Source of the DNA: Nannobrachium achirus
Taxonomy: Eukaryota; Chordata; Actinopteri; Myctophiformes; Myctophidae
Direction of reading: 5' to 3'
NCBI GenBank assembly: GCA_963921795.1
Contig: OY997645.1
Location: 26,954,159 to 27,018,158, forward strand
DNA: 64,000 nucleotides
The notes below the pieces were generated by a model. It ran no database searches, was not told the origin of the DNA, and saw only the letters and a list, made by a program, of their open reading frames with translations. Positions 29,155 to 63,787 of this stretch are shown here, one piece after another. Position numbers and translations under genes: made by a program. Every line of letters starts with the position of its first letter. Positions within the stretch are counted from its first letter, which is position 1.

Positions 29155-29668
29155 CAGTGGTGGTCTGGTGGACAAAGTGTTCAACCCCAGTACTAGTAGT
29201 CAAAAGTATAGATATTCCTGGCTAAATACTATTTAACTCGAGTACAAATTAGACAGAGCAACTGTCACTTTAAGTGCTGGAGTACTTGGTTTTAATAATA
29301 CTTAAGTATTCAAATGTAGATGCTTTTAATTCAAAAGTACAAATGGCATTGTACATTGTCTTTTTAATCAATGCATGCACAAAAAAAAATAATAGGTGAA
29401 AATAGCTTAACTACAAGCTCAAAATGCGACTCGTTGTAAACTTGTAGAACTGCTATTTTCACTATAATTGAAATAAGGCTTAAGTAGTTAATTCATTATG
29501 TACTTTTTTCCTAGAAATGTAGTCAACATAATATTTGTCTTTGAATTGTAGTGGAGTGAAAGTCATAAGTATCCAAAAATATTCAAATAATACTCAATTA
29601 ACATACAGATAAAATAAATACTTAAGTACAGTACTCAAGTAAATGTATTGTGTTACTGTCCACCACTG
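29155..29668. mobile_element. AGTACTT-type MITE, copy 2
   Basis: It starts CAGTGGTGGTCTGG and ends TACTGTCCACCACTG, with inverted termini and many AAGTACTT words. Flanks TAGATATA and TATCTATA are similar but not identical. The palindromic module at 29396-29462 is embedded. Confidence 0.75.
29396..29462. repeat. Palindromic GATCTACA module
   Basis: GTGAAAATAGC and CTACAAGCTCA on the left pair with AACTTGTAG and GCTATTTTCAC on the right, around a loop with ATGCGACTCG. It lies inside AGTACTT MITE copy 2. Confidence 0.75.
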
Positions 29669-39492: not shown

Positions 39493-39567
39493 AGTGAAAG
39501 TAGCAGATCTACAAGCTCACGTGTCACATCGCAATGCGTTGAGCTTGTAGACCTGCTATTATTTCAC
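39493..39567. repeat. Palindromic GATCTACA module
   Basis: AGTGAAAGTAGCAGATCTAC and AAGCTCAC on the left pair with GAGCTTGTAGACCTGCTA and TTTCACT on the right. The loop contains ATCGCAATGCG. It is one of the more complete copies. Confidence 0.8.
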
Positions 39568-53345: not shown

Positions 53346-53995
53346 CACCTCTCTGGTCACCCAGGATCATGTGTACCGATTTTTGTGACATTTGAAGAAA
53401 ATATGTAGGAAAAGGTGCAAAAAGTGTGTTTTGGAGAAAATTCAAGATGGCGGAAAATCTATCCTGGCGCAAATGGGCGTGGCCTATATGGGGAGATGCG
53501 TCTTGACCCAAGGAATCCAGGGAAAAAAGAATTTTAATTTTCCGATCTACGGTTCAAGAGTTACGGGGCAAAACGCAAAGTGGGCCGTTATAGCGCCACC
53601 ATGAGGCCGAGTGATGTAATTATTTTTGGATTCATTCTTAAAATCATTATGAATCTCCTCTCCGAGGTTTGAAACTGTAGCTCCTATGGTTTACGAGAGA
53701 AAAATACTTGAATGTGAGTTTTTGCAATTCCCATTATAAGTCAATGGGGAAAATTAATTCACTAATTAATTAATATCAATTAAACTATAGAACCTTTCTC
53801 TTAGCAAGTTACTAGCACACGATTCCCGAGTAAGCCGGTCGATTTGACATATGGCGCGAGTGTGTGGTGCAAAAACTGTGGGAGGAGTAGCGTGCCAAAC
53901 TTTGAGGCTACATACAGACAGACACGGACGGACGGACGGACGGCCACACACACGGCCACGTATAGGGAGCTTGTGTTCCACACAGCTCCAAAAAT
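53277..53995. mobile_element. GGAGCTGTGTG-ended repeat with (GT)n inside
   Basis: The left TTCGAAGTGGAGCTGTGTG and right TTCCACACAGCTCCAAAA share inverted GGAGCTGTGTG/CACACAGCTCC ends. The (GT)n array (53299-53342) begins directly within the left end. The interior contains AGGATCATGTGTACCGATTT, TTATAGCGCCACCATGAGG and a (GGAC)n run (53926-53943). It is related to 8231-8870 and 60938-61330. No protein domain was seen. Confidence 0.65.
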
Positions 53996-56900
53996 AAGGT
54001 GATATGGACAGTTGAGCGTAGGCCCGGCAATGGCCGGGTGTAAGGCAGGCAGGCTTCACCTAAGAGCCAAATGCCAGAATGGCATTTTTCACTAGTTTAT
54101 TCAATGGAACGTATTAACAAGAGCTTCTGACTAAATAACTACATTGGATCTATCAGAACACAGGTTTTTTCCATTTCCTGAAATGTAAGTATGTAACCGT
54201 TTAGGACATACAGTACAAGGTTTACACCCGAGACCAAGAGCAACAATGATCTATATACTGTTGTGAATTTCCATAGGGAAATAAAACTTTGTTCCTCTTG
54301 AGAAATTCTGTTTGATAAGAAACCCTATGCCTTCCCTTACATAAGAGGGGCTCTTTGAGGCTAACCTATAAGTGAGCACTGTCCCTGAATCTGTACACTT
54401 CTTTTGATACGTTTTTTTAAATGTATTTCTGACCTATGCCAGTGACATAGGTTGTCTGTCTCTACAGTAATCAAACAAACATCTCAAATGGCTGTGCGTA
54501 GAGAGTGTGGCCATTGATTCATGTCTCAGGCAGGGCCACCTTGACCCGAGTGGCCCCACTCCATTCTCACTTTGGCTCAGTAACAACAAAGGCAGGCATG
54601 CGCCTGAGACCTGTATAGGAACCAAGAGCAGAGACAGGTGGCAAGGAGAGTGGCAGATATTGAATAAAAAGAAGTCTTAAGTGTAAATGTAAGCTATCCC
54701 ATCCTGTTGCCTTGTCAGTTATGGAACACATATCAGGGACTGGATCAGCAGTAATGACTTTGTAGGCCTGAGGCAAGGGCACTGTGCCTCATAGTTGACT
54801 ATGCGTCCAGCACCTGTGGCAAATGGCAAACTCCATGTTCAATAGCTTCAATCCACCAAGCCTCAGGCCAAGTTCAAAATAATGTAATTGGATGAAAATG
54901 CCAGTCGTACTCACATCTGTGTTTATCTTCCTGGCCTACGGCACTTCTATTACAACCATAGCGTTTTATGTAAAGTGTCAAGGCTACACCAAGCTCAACA
55001 AAGACCCTTGGGTTGCCATAGAGATGTTGCTCTGAATCTTAAAGAAGTTGCAGATGAAAATTCACATCTTAGATGCAAATGATGGCTCCAGAAAGGTTAT
55101 TGAAGTGTTGAAGGATAAATAAATAAAAGTCCACATGGATTCATTTTATTTATTTAAACTTTTTTGTTATTATTTATTTAATCTGCAATTGTATTATACT
55201 ATATTTCTTAGATATGAGTGTGTATATACAGCAAACTAATGGCAGAGAAAGAGTAGAGACATGAAAGACACAGAGAGTCTGTTTCGAACTTGATGACACC
55301 ATCAAAGCATCCGATGGCCCATAACGGTGTGTGCTTCATTTCTTCCACGCCCAAATTCATCAATATCATCTTTCTCCAGCTCTTGAGTGTCGCTCGCTTT
55401 AAGCTGGACTTTCCCCCACAGACATTGCTCTATCCACTCCTCCATAATTAAGCCTCCATGAAGATCAAAGTTAAACTTTGTTGTGGATTTCACCTCCACC
55501 TGAATGGTGGTCATGTGATATGCGTTTTCAGGCTTGCTATGGACAGAGGATATTTCTGAGACAGTGATAAAATGCTTGTGTACGGTTTAGCCTAGAAACC
55601 AGACGAATCTGCCATTGCAAAAAAAATGCCCTCGGCAGATTTGATATCTACACACAGTGATATTAGTCTGGCCAAGCCAGGGTAGTGTACCGTGGACAGA
55701 GATTTCCTGTGGCAATGTTTTTACTGGGTGTCAATGAACTGCCAAACTTAATTCTGCTGCATTTAATCATTTGAGTATAATTAACATATAGGTGAGTCCT
55801 CTTGTGGGGGAGTGAGAACCAGTTAATTAATCAGTGCTGACATCTCTGCTAATTTATACAAGTGTCCCAAGTTCCACTCAGTAACATCTGGAGACGCAGC
55901 AGGTGAATGAGCTCCTCTGCTCCCTCCACCATGAGAAGGATGGAGGGATTGCTCATTGGATTGAATATACAGGATGGTCATTGGTATTTTAACCAGACAT
56001 TGATACATTGTACCACCATCAGTCTAAATGGACTGATCCTTTTTTGTCAAAACCAGGGCTCAAAGGTTGTTCTTATGGCAGTCAGAGAATCCAAATAAAT
56101 GAATGTCTTTTGTGACTGCTTAATTAAGCCGGGGATGAGAGAGCTTTTCTTTTTGTAAATGGCATAAAATAGATTATGATTTATAAACACAAGCGTTTGT
56201 TTCAAATGAAGGCATTTTTCATGGTTGCCAGAAATGCGACATAAGTGAAGCCCACGAAATTGTTTAATCAGTAACTCTTCGGTTTGATGGACAATTTAAC
56301 CAGCAAAAGACCAGCTGAGTAATCATTCATGCTTCATAAATGTTTGAAGAGCTGTGGACCTAACATTTGATGAACATTAAGATTTCAACACCTCATGAAT
56401 ACTCAAAAGAGCAGACTTCTTCCCCACTCTTCCATCTGTCTTGTTATTGTTTCTCTCTCGCCAATCCTTGTTCTAATTACCTTGAAGTTTAGCCTGACCT
56501 GAACCTGTGCCTATAAAACTTCACTCAGCATGCCATCAGCCAACACAGCGTGGTCCTCTACATTTATAATTCAGTGTGCACTATCAAAGATCATGACCTG
56601 TGGTTCTGTCAGTGAGTGTTAGTGTTTCAGCTCATCACCACGCCCCACCCATGGCGGTTGCACCCGTTATTTGTCCAACTTTCTAACTTTTATATTCTCT
56701 CTACTCACCCTTTGTAAGTAGAGAAATATTTTAGGTAGAAAATCCTAGCATACACATTATCATGGCTATTAAAAACCCCAACCTTCAAATTAAATCTCCC
56801 ATGTCGTCATGCAAGTTGTAACTCTGACCCTGTTGCTTTTGACATATCTTTACAGGAAGTGGGCAGAACGTGGGCACTGACCTGTGACTTGTTGGACTGG

Positions 56901-58446
56901 CAGAGATGCATTTTTATCAGGACACCAGCTCTTAGATGGATTAACAGGTGAGCTCGCTGCCCCACGGCCAACCCATCTCATGCACTATTCATTTGATACT
57001 TCAACACTGCCTCCATTGTATGTTTGAGGTTTTGTTCTTTTTTTTATTGGTCATTCCAACTTCATTCGAACTGAAAAGGTGGCCATAATGGGAGACATTG
57101 TGAGCTGATTCATGTGGTGATTGAATGATGGTTTTCTATTCAACAGAGATGGAATGGATAGCAGCCACAGAGAAGCGGCTTGCCCACGTTTGAAAATGAT
57201 AATGAAATAGCAGGCAGATGAAGCAAATGGTTTATTCTTGATGACGATGACTGATTGAGGGGCGCATAATGAGTCATTTCAATGATTGGCCTCAATTCTA
57301 TGACCTAATGCTGGGAAACCTGATCAGACTATTTTGCATTTACCTGCAGGTATGGGAAATGGATCCAAGGCTGGTGCTGAATATTTCAGCAGGGCTCGGC
57401 CCAAATGCAGCTGAGAAAGCTAACACAAGGGTTGGCCAAGGTTTCAACCTGTGGAAGATTACATCACTAACTTACTGCCCACAAGATAGTGATGTGCAAT
57501 GGAGGACAGTCTACTACAAGTGCCCAATAGAGCACCAAAGTCTGACGCAATTTACGCATCCTACCAGGGTCACTTTCCCTCACACCCCACCCATTCCCAT
57601 GACGCGTGTAATATCGCGGCATTTACGAGCTGTGTTCCAAAAACAAACAATTTACAATTTAGGCATTTAGCAGAGTGATTTACAATATCTCATGACCACC
57701 ATACAGGTGGAGGTGAAATCCAGTACATCAACATCAATACATCAAATGCATAAATAGTAGGCTAATCTAAGAAAAACGTAGGTGGATGAAGCACCTATAC
57801 AGTAAAACGTTTAAAAGTATTAAAAAGGCTTTACTCATGAAGCATCAACTGATGGTGAGAAAACACTAATGTTACCACTGCAAAAAAACAAATCTTTTTA
57901 TTTAATATCGCTGGGATAATTTGTTTGTTTTTGTACCACAGTTCTTATATGAGACGATTCTAAGATGACCCAATGTCATTTTCCATAGAGAAAAACTTCT
58001 GTGACCCAGGGGATGAGAGGACTTCGGTACTCTATATACTTGCTGGCTGCTAGCCACTGCTATCAACCATGGTTTCATAATGACAAATAATGGCTAAATG
58101 AACATATACCAAGAACATGAATCACCATACATATGTTACCGGGGTTCCTAACTCGTTTAGATTTAGTAAGTATCTGTGTGTGGCTTGAGAGACGCCTGCT
58201 GGGAAGTCCTTTGGGAGTGGGACTCTTTTTGCACTAGCAATGCACAAGCAAACCTATATGCAATGATAACTGCAAATAATTTTGTCACCCAGTTTTGGGA
58301 CAACCAGGCTGTTTATTTGTCAAAACATGGAATCCAGGTCATTATAAGGGACATGGCTGTTAGTTGGCAGAAGTTACCCGATTACTACATGTGATGACCT
58401 ATGTCGACTACCAAAAGACACTTATTAACTGCCAAAAAAAGAGTGG
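53996..58446. other. Long non-coding stretch, possible conserved elements
   Basis: 4.4 kb almost free of recognised repeats. 56100-56400 is AT-rich with CTTAATTAAG-like homeodomain-type words and resembles conserved non-coding DNA by eye. Open frames such as the one at 57269-57670 have no domain, no splice context and no codon bias. No RNA gene was found. Confidence 0.35.
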
Positions 58447-59462
58447 ATATGGGTCAGTGACGTGACGCCCCAAAAAATGTGTTTTTTAAAAAACTTTAAA
58501 TTGCAGGCATAAAAGTTATTTACTTTTGTTCTACTCACTCTCAACCTTATGGAAATACATTTTGTTTTTAGATATTTTATTGGAATCAGACTTTATTCAG
58601 CAGTTTGTTGTACTTGTGCCTAAAATCGTCATATGGTGTGACATGAAAATAATTGTTCATAAAATGAAAATGGAGTACATCTTTCTTAAGTTACTCACTT
58701 TATCAAAGTCCTTTATCATAACTAACCAGTGATCCACTATAGTTTTTTGAAAATTAATTATATCTGTATATTCTTTTCATAATCGACACTCTGTGTGAGG
58801 CCCATGTTCATGATCTTACAACATATTTTAAATGTATTCTGTCAAAACTTTCTCTAAAATTACACAAATATTTGTGACTCTTCCTGATAATATTCTCTAT
58901 GTAATCCATAAACATTTTTTTGGTTTAATCATTAATAAAGGTATGATTTCTCACTATTTGGAATGTCACACCAAATGATTTAGTGTCACACCGTATGATC
59001 ATATCTTCATGTGTCAAAGCAAACTGTGTTTTAACCTACCTATTAGTGAGTACTGAACTTTACTGATTGATTAAACTATTACCCAGGATAACATGGCCTT
59101 AATATTTCTGAACAGGATATTATTGTAGGGCTTTAACATGGGATAAGAAAGAATTGTAGTAGTAGATGGATGATGAGGATGTGCACAGGAATGCTACGCA
59201 CACCTAAGTCTTCTGCCGGCCCACGGCAGAAGGATCCTAAAGGGACAATAAGGCGCATAGCCACACTTGGAGCCAAGGCATTGAAGGCAACATTTTATTA
59301 ACACCAATTAGTGGAAACAGAACTCAGCATTCAGGTAAATTGCTTTTTTCCGAAGTCTCCTGAACTTGAACACAGCATTTTTTTGTGTTGAACAAATGTA
59401 ATTAGGAATCATGACATAACACCACATCTCCACTAGCTAAAGAGTGCTGGGTTGCGCAACTC

Positions 59463-59529
59463 CGAAAATAGCTGATCTACAAGCTCTCGCAGCACAACGT
59501 GTTGAGAGCTTGTAGATCAGCTATTTTCG
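59463..59529. repeat. Palindromic GATCTACA module, perfect arms
   Basis: 26-bp perfectly complementary arms (59463-59488 and 59504-59529, starting CGAAAATAGCTGATC) around a 15-nt loop. It is the best-preserved copy of the family in the window. Confidence 0.88.
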
Positions 59530-59621
59530 CTAGTTTTGTCTCGGGTCCTACCTTAACACTGTCCACTGTCCAGTCCAGTGAGTGAAAGTACAAAAGTATT
59601 AGATCAGATTAGATTATACAT

Positions 59622-59816
59622 TTAGACTGTATTGTACATCAGCCAGTCGTATTTGGTGAGGGTAGCAAACCGGCTGCCTTGTTGCGGTTCTGCTATGCCA
59701 CAGACAACCTCCTGCTCTTCGTAGAAAATGCAGTCTCGCCCCTTTGGCTCCTCTCTCCTTGCTGGGTCATTGTTTAGTTTCTCCCTGTACTTTCTCGTTC
59801 TCTCAGCACTTGTCAT
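59622..59816 (-). pseudogene. Possible transposon ORF remnant
   Basis: A 64-codon frame starts MTSAERTRKYREKL and continues NNDPARREE. This basic charged start resembles the N-terminus of ORFs I recall from fish DNA transposons. After about residue 23 the resemblance stops and the frame ends at 64 residues, so it looks truncated or frameshifted. Its position inside the 58.4-60.9 kb element fits a decayed transposon protein. The resemblance is from memory, not a search. Confidence 0.35.
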
Positions 59817-60937
59817 TTTCCAGCTGACAAAAGAAAATGGAATGTATAGTTTAAGACAAAGAGAAAATATTGTTTAGATTGAAACAATATGTTAAGGTTT
59901 CTGTGAAGGGGTTTCTGCTCTGTCTGATGAATTTGAAGTATCACTGAATGAAGCTAAATTACATTTTATGTAAAAATGTTTAAAACAAATGTTTAAATGT
60001 ACAAAAGAAACATGGAACTTTGTTATTTGTTGTTATATCTGTAGTTAAATACAGTATAAATCATATGGTGTGACAGTCAAGTCATATGGTGTGACAAGCA
60101 GACATGTCACACCATATGATTAAGTGTCACATTACTGTTTTCTCCATTTAGGTTTACCTTGAGGCTACTATGTACACATTAGCATGCTAACAGCATGCTA
60201 GTATAACAAAGCAGCCTAGATCTACATGGAAATATGACCAAAACTTCAAATAACTTAAGCTTTTTTTAAAGAAAAGGTGTCACACCAAAAGACATCCAGA
60301 ATGGTGAGTTTGTCAACGTTTCAACAAGATGGCATTTCATGAAAATGTTAAAATCATAACTCACCTCAGACACCTGTCTTGCAGTTGTGCTGGGAGTGCT
60401 GAATAGCCTTACAGAAGAAGGACCTCTCTAGCCAATAGGTGTCCAAATAATTGCCTGTTTAATTTTTCCAAACTAGTGTCACACCAAATGATTTTGGGTT
60501 GGGGGACAAAATGTTTTTGATCAGAAATGACTGAAAACATTATGCTTTGACTTTGAAAAGATATAGGCTCAAAATAGACATTTTTTTTAGCCTAAATTCA
60601 TTTTCAAATGATTTTTAGCAATTCTTTTTCTTAGTTTTATTCAAGTTCCCACTTTGAGAAACAAGGTCAGGACAGTCACACCATATGAGTTTTGCCATGT
60701 TTGGTTGAAGATTCTGAAGAAATGAGGAATGAAATGTTTTAATCTTGAGTAAGTTCACATAAAGCTTAAGGTCCTGCACAATATTCAGAAGGTTTTTGAC
60801 AAATATATTTTTTATTTATACATGTTTGACACCGAGGACAGCAAAAACGTTACGTCACGTCACCCACCCATATACAGAATGCACTGATGTTTAACATAGT
60901 AAAACTAGAAGCAGTGCTCTTCCGAGCACAGGTCTCC

Positions 60938-61228
60938 ACCAGGCCACACAAATCGGCCTGTTATAGCGCCACCATGAGGCTGATTTAAAAAATGTGGGGC
61001 AGAGGTTCTGAATTAGCATCCAGGGAGTGTGTGTGCTCAGTTTGGCAGCGATCGGGCCAACGGCGCCGGAGATTAGCTGGTAACAACCAGGCCACACAAA
61101 TCGGCCTGTTATAGCGCCACCATGAGGCTGATTTGAAAAATGTGGGGCAGAGGTTCTAGATTGGCATCCAGGGAGTGTGTGTGCTCAGTTTGGCAGCGAT
61201 CGGGCCAACGGTGACTGAGATTAGCTGC
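60938..61228 (+). repeat. 148-bp tandem duplication
   Basis: Two direct units (60938-61085 and 61086-61228) start ACCAGGCCACACAAATCGGC, contain TTATAGCGCCACCATGAGGC and CAGTTTGGCAGCGATCGGGC, and differ at only a few positions. The surroundings CCGAGCACAGGTCTCC link it to 8231-8870. Confidence 0.9.
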
Positions 61229-61235
61229 ACACAAA

Positions 61236-61300
61236 CTGCGAGGACACACGGACACACGGACACACGGACACACGGACGGACGCACGGACGGACGGAGGGG
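61236..61300 (+). repeat. (GGACACAC)n / (GGAC)n short tandem repeat
   Basis: Four GGACACAC-type octamers followed by GGAC/GGAC variants. A similar (GGAC)n run is at 53926-53943, in the related element. Confidence 0.9.
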
Positions 61301-61330
61301 AAAACATACTCTCCCTCAGCCTTCGGCTGG

Positions 61331-61765
61331 TGGAGACAATCATAGTGAAGTAGTGGGGTGGGGAGGGGTGTGGGAGCGAAACTACTCATAAGCAAATATA
61401 TAATAGCTCCGATGCCCATGTGTTGATACAATGTTGTGGTTTTATGACCTATCAATCAGTATGAAAGATAGCAGTGGCAATATGAGGGCTACATAGTGAC
61501 GGCACTGTATTCTGTGTAATGGATAAAGTGAGGCTGAGTTGAACACAATGCACAAGAGGAAACATCACCGTTATAATCTCTCCTTCGCTGATCTTTATGA
61601 TTAGCTTTTGTGTGCGATTCACGTATGTAACAGATGTCTTTGTGTGCACGGTTGGTTCAAACTCAGGAAAACCAGGCCACCACATGCACATAAGCCCGTT
61701 GCACTTCCAGTAGTGCTACTTTTGCAAACCACTGGCTCAGTGCAACAAGAAGCTCATTGTGCGTT

Positions 61766-61796
<31 letters not shown>

Positions 61797-63787
61797 GCAT
61801 GTGCGTGTGTGTGAGGCACAGTGACTCCAGGTGAACATGGCAGCCCTACAACCATGATTTTCCTATCTACTGTAGATCTAGTTAGGTTGAACTCGGTGGC
61901 CCCATTCAAGGTTTTTGATTTCCCTGTTGGTCTCTCTATTGTTATGCATAATAGATCAGAAGAAAACACCATCAGTGCCTGTAGTTATTGTGATGACCTG
62001 GTTAATAACAGATATTTACATGTATTTGAGCGGCCACTGCTGAAGAATGCCAGGAATTATCTGTGGTTTGTTCCTGCTCATAATGTGAGCAGACCATTTA
62101 TAATCGCTTACGAATCTGTGATAGTCTTTTGTAGCCAATCGGAGATATCTGCCTACTGATATATCTGGAGGAATCTAAATTCAATATAACAGTGGCGAGA
62201 ACCTCCGCCTACAATGCTTACTGATTTTGAAACCAAATGGATGGCATCCCCCATATGAAGGACTGCCTAAGGTCTTTGTATTGGTTCTCCCATGCTGTTA
62301 TTATATTCTGAAACAAATAATGATAATTGTTGCCACACAGTTTTAGCCCCTACATTGAATTTACCCTACACGTCAGTAGGCAGAAATGAGACAATACCGT
62401 AGATTCAATGTGTGTGAGTGTGACTGTTTGTGAACGTGAATGTGCATTATTCTGAAGTTATGACACAGAGTCAGAGAAAAGCAGCCAATAGCCTCTAATG
62501 CCAATTTTCCAGGCTCATGCAGTAGCTATGCTCAAATAAAAATATTATGGACTGGTGCTACCAGGCTTCTGACTCCCTGTCTAAGAATGTCAGCAGACCA
62601 TGCTACAAACTGATAACATTTGAACATCAAATATTTCAAGTTGTACTCACACTAGGGCAGGAGACTAGTTCAATTCCACCGGTAAAGTTCCCCAAAAAGT
62701 GTCAATCACAAAAATGTTACTATTATATCAGCCCAATGTTTTAGTATGATATAAAGAGCCTTGCTAATTACTAGTAAATACTACTGGCTTTGACAGACTC
62801 CATCACATGGTGACTATGACTAAGGTTCAGTAGTTTCTCAGGTTATTGAACATCAACGCGAGTTTCAGTGTTTAGCTTATAGCCCTGTTTACAGTACATG
62901 ATTAAATGACATTGTTCAGAAAAGGTGTTTTACAGCTGTAATCTATGTGTTCTACCTCTGGAGGTGGCAGGTACATTATACTCCAGTGTAAATGGAGATG
63001 ATAGGTCTGGGTGGCTGAGTGCTCTTATCTTCTGTGTGTGTGTTTGTGGAGCAGGAAGTAATTTGGGCAAATGGTCTATTATTGACTGGAAACTTCACCC
63101 ACCACCACCTTTGCTGGTCAGACTCTTTGATCCCAGGCTGCATGGTAACCTCCTGTTTGTACGTGAGAGAGAGAGAGGGTGAGACAGAGAGAGGTTGATG
63201 AATCGGCTTCCATTTCTTAAGCTGAGGTGGTTGAATTTCCATCAGCTTATTTATAGGGCCTCTGATTTATGGCTGGTTGTGACTTTACTTGAAAGTTTTG
63301 AGAGAAGGGGACAGAGAAAGTTGTGAAGTTGTTGAGAGAAAGACTGTGAAGCGGTCTGTAGCTTCACATGAAAATAACATCACAAACTAGCAACACGTTT
63401 GACACAATGCTAGACAGTTGCTTCACATAAACACATCTTGAACATAAAAAGACTCTTTTAACTACAGTAACTGTGACAAGATGACTGCTTAAAAAATAGC
63501 ATATTTATTGTATGTTGCCCTAAGATTTAGGATTAGAGTCGGGCAGCTTGATGTAGGCTGGAACAAAGGATGGCTTCAATCGGTTTGATTTACACTTTAT
63601 GGGCTCATAGTCTTTCTTCCCCATTACCTTTATAGCTATTTTGTGAATACTGAACAGCCTGCAGTGCTTTTCAGTTGCACTGTTACATTGCCAAACCATG
63701 CTGTAATTCTGTATCTAATGATGCTCTCTAGGATTGTCCGGTAGAACATCATGATCCACCTGTTCACACCATACAGGCTCAATTTCC
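61331..63787. other. Non-coding DNA with one (GT)n array
   Basis: Contains (GT)n at about 61764-61820 with GCGTGTGC interruptions and a short GA run near 63169. No exon, RNA gene or transposon end was recognised. Confidence 0.4.

What the first reader, a model, noticed from the sequence alone, without database searches (positions are those of the whole stretch)
58447..60873. 2.4-kb element carrying about ten TCACACCATATGA-like words in both orientations
Ten near-copies of a 13-15 bp word occur inside one segment bounded by inverted ATATGGGT..GTGACGTGAC termini, and I noticed none elsewhere in the window. Chance cannot explain that density. The core TCACACC is a T-box half-site and CATATG an E-box, so each word could be a composite transcription-factor site; equally they may be transposase-binding sites. 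A repeat family spreading clusters of such sites would be notable. The sites and termini are seen; the roles are inference.
Basis: partly seen in the sequence, partly recalled or inferred. Interest (0 to 1): 0.72.

Follow-up and report, generated by a model that had tools for sequence, protein, structure and literature searches.

The report
Young jumping gene with word array
The segment is a recently multiplied jumping DNA element without a working gene of its own, whose repeated short words most likely help a movement enzyme grip it, although that role has not been shown.

Summary
Nine near-copies of TCACACCATATGA lie in 58447-60873, and GTCACACC occurs 9 times in the 64-kb window, all inside. 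The segment is one copy of a young, non-autonomous cut-and-paste DNA transposon. Of the 40 best-scored places in the window's own genome (window copy included) 38 carry both ends; the 21 compared first differ by 0.19% on average. The true unit is 58451-60869. It has 17-bp terminal inverted repeats beginning GGGT and 4-bp target duplications, exact in 29 of 38 copies and single at unoccupied paralogous sites. Most copies have ten words (34 of 40); the window copy has lost one. The outermost words sit 178 and 181 bp from the two ends in inverted orientation, and words and terminal repeats share GTGAC. Inside copies the words mutate as fast as the rest (0.32% vs 0.33%), so host use as T-box/E-box sites gains no support. 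Best reading: internal binding sites for the transposase or its partner protein (inference). The superfamily is open: Sola2 is the best lead, but no transposase was found; the genome search answered 2 of 58 requests.

The parts
58447..58450 (.). left target-site duplication ATAT
   Evidence: 4-bp direct repeats flank the 38 two-ended copies, exact in 29 of 38; unoccupied sites hold the four bases once
58451..60869 (+). transposon unit, 2419 bp (2425 bp is the commonest length among the 21 copies measured)
   Evidence: copy boundaries; lengths
58451..58467 (+). left terminal inverted repeat GGGTCAGTGACGTGACG
   Evidence: 15 of 17 bases as in the right repeat
58629..58641 (-). word 1, exact; 178 bp from the left end of the unit
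58966..58978 (+). word 2, 1 mismatch
58986..58998 (+). word 3, 1 mismatch
58999..60060 (.). word-free core; richer in G+C than the arms over most of its length
59463..59529 (.). 26-bp perfect inverted repeat with 15-bp loop; similar repeats lie elsewhere in the window and beside other insertions, so probably a nested or captured hairpin repeat
59622..59816 (-). remnant reading frame of 64 codons from an ATG (MTSAERTRKYREKLNNDPARREE...), preceded by a splice-acceptor-like stretch; probably a first-exon remnant of a lost gene
   Evidence: frame 59622-59873; 150 of 150 scored genome places carry the same 64 residues; the exon reading is inference
60061..60073 (-). word 4, exact
60082..60094 (-). 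word 5, exact
60107..60119 (+). word 6, exact
60125..60137 (+). remnant of word 7 (TGTCACA, then a deletion of about 5 bp); a word with 1 mismatch in 19 of the 21 copies
60280..60292 (+). word 8, 2 mismatches
60479..60491 (+). word 9, 1 mismatch
60676..60688 (+). word 10, exact; 181 bp from the right end of the unit
60853..60869 (-). right terminal inverted repeat, read inward GGGTGGGTGACGTGACG
60870..60873 (.). right target-site duplication ATAT
   Evidence: as for the left one

Best explanation
A non-autonomous cut-and-paste DNA transposon, about 2.43 kb, that lost its gene (probably by internal deletion) and multiplied very recently with enzymes supplied in trans. Shown: the family, its ends, the 4-bp target duplication, the recency of the best-scored copies, and ten words in most copies. 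Inferred: the lost gene, supply in trans, and that the words are internal binding sites for the element's transposase or a DNA-binding partner protein. That protein would read a GTGAC-type core both in the terminal repeats (GTGACGTGACG) and in the words (GGTGTGACA). The outermost inverted pair of words, about 180 bp from each end, would help bring the two ends together, and the inner words would recruit or titrate more protein.
For: 38 of the 40 best-scored places in the own genome have both ends. Mean pairwise difference is 0.19% over 21 copies. The target duplication is exact in 29 of 38, against 4.7 on average and 11 at most when left and right sides are paired at random. Unoccupied paralogous sites hold the four bases once, cleanly for L035 (in the L038 flank) and L037 (in the L029 flank). 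Outermost words are symmetric and inverted, 178 bp and 181 bp from the ends. GTGAC occurs 15 times in L028's unit, of which 4 are in the terminal repeats and 10 in the words; 300 shuffles gave a mean of 4.0 and a maximum of 10. GTCACACC is intact in all nine window words while the following bases vary. Words 1 and 6-10 have GTGAC in the same orientation as the nearer terminal repeat.
Against: No transposase, autonomous partner or binding data was found. Words 2-5 point the opposite way from the nearer terminal repeat. Words reach about 815 bp from the right end, further than the terminal 200 that a Hermes paper gives for Tol2 (passage, cut there). Some of the repetition is local duplication: element positions 1623-1685 match themselves inverted at 81%, and two 28-bp stretches match at 93%, so not every word need be selected. 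The GTGAC count in words is not independent of the words being copies of one another, and two other five-base words, CCGGC and ACACC (the second lies in the words), have a larger excess ratio. The words are not conserved after insertion.
Confidence: 0.6

Rival explanations
1. The words are host transcription-factor sites (T-box half-site plus E-box) that the element uses for its own germline expression or spreads as regulatory modules.
Against: Words in inserted copies are not conserved above background; CATATG is intact in 5 of 9 window words; the symmetry about the two ends and the core shared with the terminal repeats are not expected of this. No expression or binding data were available.
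Confidence: 0.15
2. The words are passive: descendants of a short sequence multiplied inside the ancestral element by local direct and inverted duplication, with no binding role.
For: An inverted self-match of 63 bp at 81% around words 4-7 and a 28-bp pair at 93% extend beyond the words, and gapless matches of 24-32 bp at 71-78% between other words are listed; words drift at the background rate in copies.
Against: Words 1, 8, 9 and 10 lie hundreds of bp from one another, their close matches to other words end within 13-18 bp, and the eight bases GTCACACC are invariant in all nine window words.
Confidence: 0.2
3. Chance cluster of a common motif.
For: At 3 mismatches the window count equals the shuffle expectation.
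Against: 0 of 200 shuffles of the segment had even one site with at most 1 mismatch, against 8 observed.
Confidence: 0.01

Closest known systems
Sola2 DNA transposons and their non-autonomous derivatives
   Same: AT-rich 4-bp target duplications (AWWT; ATAT, AAAT, ATTT) and short 12-21 bp inverted repeats are described for Sola2 elements of amoebozoa (PMC3627910, passages read); here the duplication is 4 bp and the repeats 17 bp.
   Different: No Sola2 transposase was found with the element. By my count of the left-hand 4-mers listed, 15 of 38 fit AWWT and 21 of 38 fit AYRT. Word arrays are not mentioned in the passages I read.
hAT elements with subterminal repeats (Hermes, Tol2)
   Same: Short repeats inside the ends are bound by the transposase's BED domains in Hermes, where two of them form a quasi-palindrome (PMC10368747, passages read).
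   Different: Target duplication 4 bp here against 5-8 bp for hAT (PMC4482050 passage); the words lie about 180-815 bp inside, not concentrated in the first 55 bp.
En/Spm with its TnpA 12-bp sites (recalled, from no call)
   Same: Many 12-13 bp protein-binding words in direct and inverted orientation inside both ends.
   Different: Termini here are GGGT, not CACTA; target duplication 4 bp, not 3 (recalled).
ISL2EU / PHIS group
   Same: Terminal repeats usually begin GG; AT-rich target (PMC4482050 passages).
   Different: ISL2EU duplicates 2 bp (AT); here 4 bp.

Membership tests
cut-and-paste DNA transposon (class II, terminal inverted repeats) | inverted termini at constant element boundaries | tested here: met
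   the same 17 bases at both ends in 38 of 40 copies; L065 and L066 lack the right end
cut-and-paste DNA transposon (class II, terminal inverted repeats) | target-site duplication of fixed length, single at unoccupied sites | tested here: met
   4 bp, exact in 29 of 38; single in the L038 flank for L035 and in the L029 flank for L037; 3 of 38 joined sites had any spanning match
cut-and-paste DNA transposon (class II, terminal inverted repeats) | DDE/D transposase in an autonomous member | tested here: inconclusive
   no Pfam match at E<=1 for 5 frames of the window copy; requests for an autonomous relative did not complete
Sola2 | 4-bp AT-rich target duplication (AWWT) | tested here: inconclusive
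   length 4 bp is met; the pattern AWWT of the passage fits 15 of 38 left-hand 4-mers (listed)
Sola2 | Sola2-type transposase | tested here: inconclusive
   no autonomous relative could be fetched
Ginger | 4-5 bp target duplication (passage) | tested here: met
   4 bp; its transposase and termini were not tested, so it is not excluded
CMC (CACTA and relatives) | 2-4 bp target duplication (passage) | tested here: met
   4 bp
CMC (CACTA and relatives) | termini beginning CAC (recalled) | tested here: not met
   termini begin GGGT
ISL2EU | 2-bp AT target duplication (passage) | tested here: not met
   4 bp
PIF/Harbinger | 3-bp TWA target duplication (passage) | tested here: not met
   4 bp
hAT | 5-8 bp target duplication (passage) | tested here: not met
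   4 bp
piggyBac | TTAA target (recalled) | tested here: not met
   none of the left or right 4-mers of the 38 two-ended copies listed is TTAA

The most novel reading that the evidence does not exclude
A transposon family whose transposase, or a separate partner protein, assembles on a long array of ten GGTGTGACA words reaching about 800 bp inward. The array would include a four-word quasi-palindrome and right-arm words about 198 bp apart, and copy number would rise or fall with word number. The target preference near GT(AYRT)AC and an excess of one-base mismatches between the two target duplications would point to an unusual strand-transfer or repair step.
Probability: 0.12. Interest if true: 0.55.

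Novelty: new member of a known kind. Interest (0 to 1): 0.33.

Why it matters
If the words are transposase sites, a very young family with many nearly identical copies that differ in word number (10, 9 or 8 here) offers a natural test of how internal binding sites drive the success of non-autonomous transposons. If they were transcription-factor sites, a recent burst would probably have spread more than a thousand of them (over 150 places, times about ten words), but the evidence here does not favour that role.

Tried and rejected
Chance clustering: rejected. ISL2EU, Harbinger and hAT by target duplication: rejected. A recognisable gene in the window copy: five frames have no Pfam match at E<=1, and no Rfam family reaches its gathering score in 56000-63000. 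Relatives in viral contigs: 19 stretches match the terminal pattern once each; 30 stretches matched a peptide pattern but none encodes a relative; the paired-word pattern has 0 matches; the 15-base word matches 40 stretches, once each, read as chance. I did not study those viral stretches further. Prokaryote genomes: paired-word pattern 0 matches. Literature: four strings of 11-13 bases gave one unrelated paper; in the listings I saw no title or abstract start about this element. Repbase and Dfam were not available. The core hairpin as a functional part: set aside, since similar repeats are dispersed.

My note says word 7 of the window copy was lost by a 6-bp deletion; reading against it is about 5 bp (the unit is 6 bp shorter in all).

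Full report
Observation. The sequence was read directly and scanned. Nine words with at most two mismatches to TCACACCATATGA lie between 58629 and 60688: five exact, three with one mismatch, one with two. In 64 kb there are 8 sites with at most one mismatch, all inside the segment, and GTCACACC occurs nine times, all inside. None of 200 shuffles gave a site with at most one mismatch. With three mismatches allowed, the window holds only what chance gives (33 against 31.1). The terminal sequence ATATGGGTNNGTGACGTGACG, with up to three mismatches, occurs at the two ends and nowhere else in the window.

What it is. Of these 40, 38 carry both ends; L065 and L066 lack the right end. The second, with the 64-residue remnant frame, scored 150 of 1593 candidates; all 150 are identical over the 64 residues and all lie on contigs C1-C4, so the list is full and the family is probably larger than 150. 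Of the 8 loci fetched with that search, 5 align over nearly the whole element at 92.9-99.1%, L068 over positions 1-2362 at 97.6%, and L067 and L069 are partial, so more diverged copies exist as well.

Ends and target. Comparing 21 copies with their flanks shows that the shared sequence begins at GGGT and that the four bases outside vary but repeat on the two sides. Over the 38 two-ended copies the 4-bp repeats are exact in 29, differ by one base in 8 and by four in 1 (L062). Pairing left and right sides at random gives 4.7 exact on average and 11 at most in 2000 trials. The two bases before the left duplication are GT in 20 and AT in 14 of 38, and those after the right one AT in 13 and AC in 12 of 38, so the preferred target is near GT-AYRT-AC. 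By my count of the left-hand 4-mers listed, 21 of 38 fit AYRT.

Empty sites. I joined the flanks of the 38 copies with one duplication and compared them with one another and with the window; 3 of 38 (L035, L036, L037) had matches across the junction. L035 in the L038 flank and L037 in the L029 flank are clean and hold the four bases once. L037 in the L063 left flank matches the four bases and the eight bases before them, then has gaps. L036 in window 53522-53994 has a gap next to the duplication, in a TG-rich stretch, and L037 in the L064 flank has a 2-base gap within the target. The unit in the window is therefore 58451-60869, and the outer ATAT are target duplications.

Age. Among 21 of the best-scored copies the mean pairwise difference is 0.19% and the largest 0.37%. 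These were picked by score, so they are the young end of the family.

Anatomy. In the 2425-bp unit of L028 the words start at 179(-), 516(+), 536(+), 1611(-), 1632(-), 1657(+), 1677(+), 1836(+), 2035(+) and 2232(+). Ten words occur in 34 of 40 copies, nine in 4 and eight in 2, the last being the two without a right end. The window copy has nine because a deletion of about 5 bp removed word 7. The outermost words lie 178 bp and 181 bp from the ends in inverted orientation. The stretch between words 3 and 4 is free of words for about 1.06 kb, is richer in G+C than the arms over most of its length, and holds the remnant frame and a 26-bp perfect hairpin. Similar hairpin repeats occur elsewhere in the window and in flanks of other copies, so it is probably a passenger. 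The remnant frame has no Pfam match at E<=1; calling it a first exon rests on its ATG and a splice-acceptor-like stretch before it, which is inference.

How it probably works. GTGAC occurs 15 times in the L028 unit: four in the two terminal repeats, ten in the words, one elsewhere. Shuffles give 4.0 on average and 10 at most. The count is weakened by the words being copies of one another, and CCGGC and ACACC have a larger excess ratio. The terminal repeats read GTGACGTGACG and the words GGTGTGACA. Words 1 and 6-10 have GTGAC in the orientation of the nearer terminal repeat; words 2-5 have it the other way. A single DNA-binding domain reading both would explain the end symmetry and the shared core. 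Binding of transposase domains to short repeats inside the ends is reported for Hermes (PMC10368747, passages). The step from that to this family is inference; no protein was found here.

Against host regulation. I compared 47 copies with L028, counting substitutions only. Word positions differ at 19 of 5932 and other positions at 349 of 105859; in the four copies with more than 0.5% difference outside the words (L065, L068, L069, L070) the figures are 12 of 468 and 163 of 8774. Gaps, such as the deletions in word 7 of the window copy and L046, are not in these counts, and changes inherited by several copies are counted in each. The words are thus not kept after insertion, as host-used sites should be. 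This does not test a role in transposition, which acts before insertion.

Against the binding reading. Part of the repetition comes from local duplication that reaches beyond the words; the words run deep into the element; words 2-5 point the other way; and the autonomous partner, which would decide superfamily and role, was not obtained because 56 of 58 requests to the genome search did not complete.

Comparison. The 4-bp duplication and short repeats agree with Sola2 as described in PMC3627910 (passages), though 15 of 38 left-hand 4-mers fit its AWWT pattern. ISL2EU (2 bp), Harbinger (3 bp) and hAT (5-8 bp) are excluded by duplication length; Ginger (4-5 bp) and CMC (2-4 bp) are not excluded by it (definitions from passages of PMC4482050), but CMC termini begin CAC (recalled). 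I therefore call it a non-autonomous DNA transposon, Sola2-like by its target duplications, superfamily not settled. Four short strings of the element found no relevant paper in the held library; Repbase and Dfam were not available, so whether this family already has a name is unknown.

Noticed in passing
L029, L034, L038, L052, L061 target duplications: Nine of 38 copies have unequal 4-bp duplications, 8 of them by one base, and 5 of these read ATNT on the left and ACNT on the right. Those 8 of 152 sites (about 5%; L062 set apart) exceed the 0.19% divergence among the 21 copies compared. Recombination between copies was not excluded.
   Followed up: partly
window 60932-61337: Next to the element lies a second small repeat with inverted ends GTCTCCACCAG ... 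CTGGTGGAGAC, holding two 148-bp units 95% alike and an ACGGACAC-type run.
   Followed up: no
window 59463-59529, also near 1546-1610, 39496-39560, 29398-29464: A dispersed hairpin repeat (GAGCTTGTAGATC..) sits in the element's core, has similar copies elsewhere in the window and lies beside, or is the target of, other insertions such as L037 and L063.
   Followed up: partly
window 60061-60137 and 60280-60688: Four words form a quasi-palindrome spaced 21, 25 and 20 bp in the L028 unit, and the last three words are spaced 199 and 197 bp.
   Followed up: no
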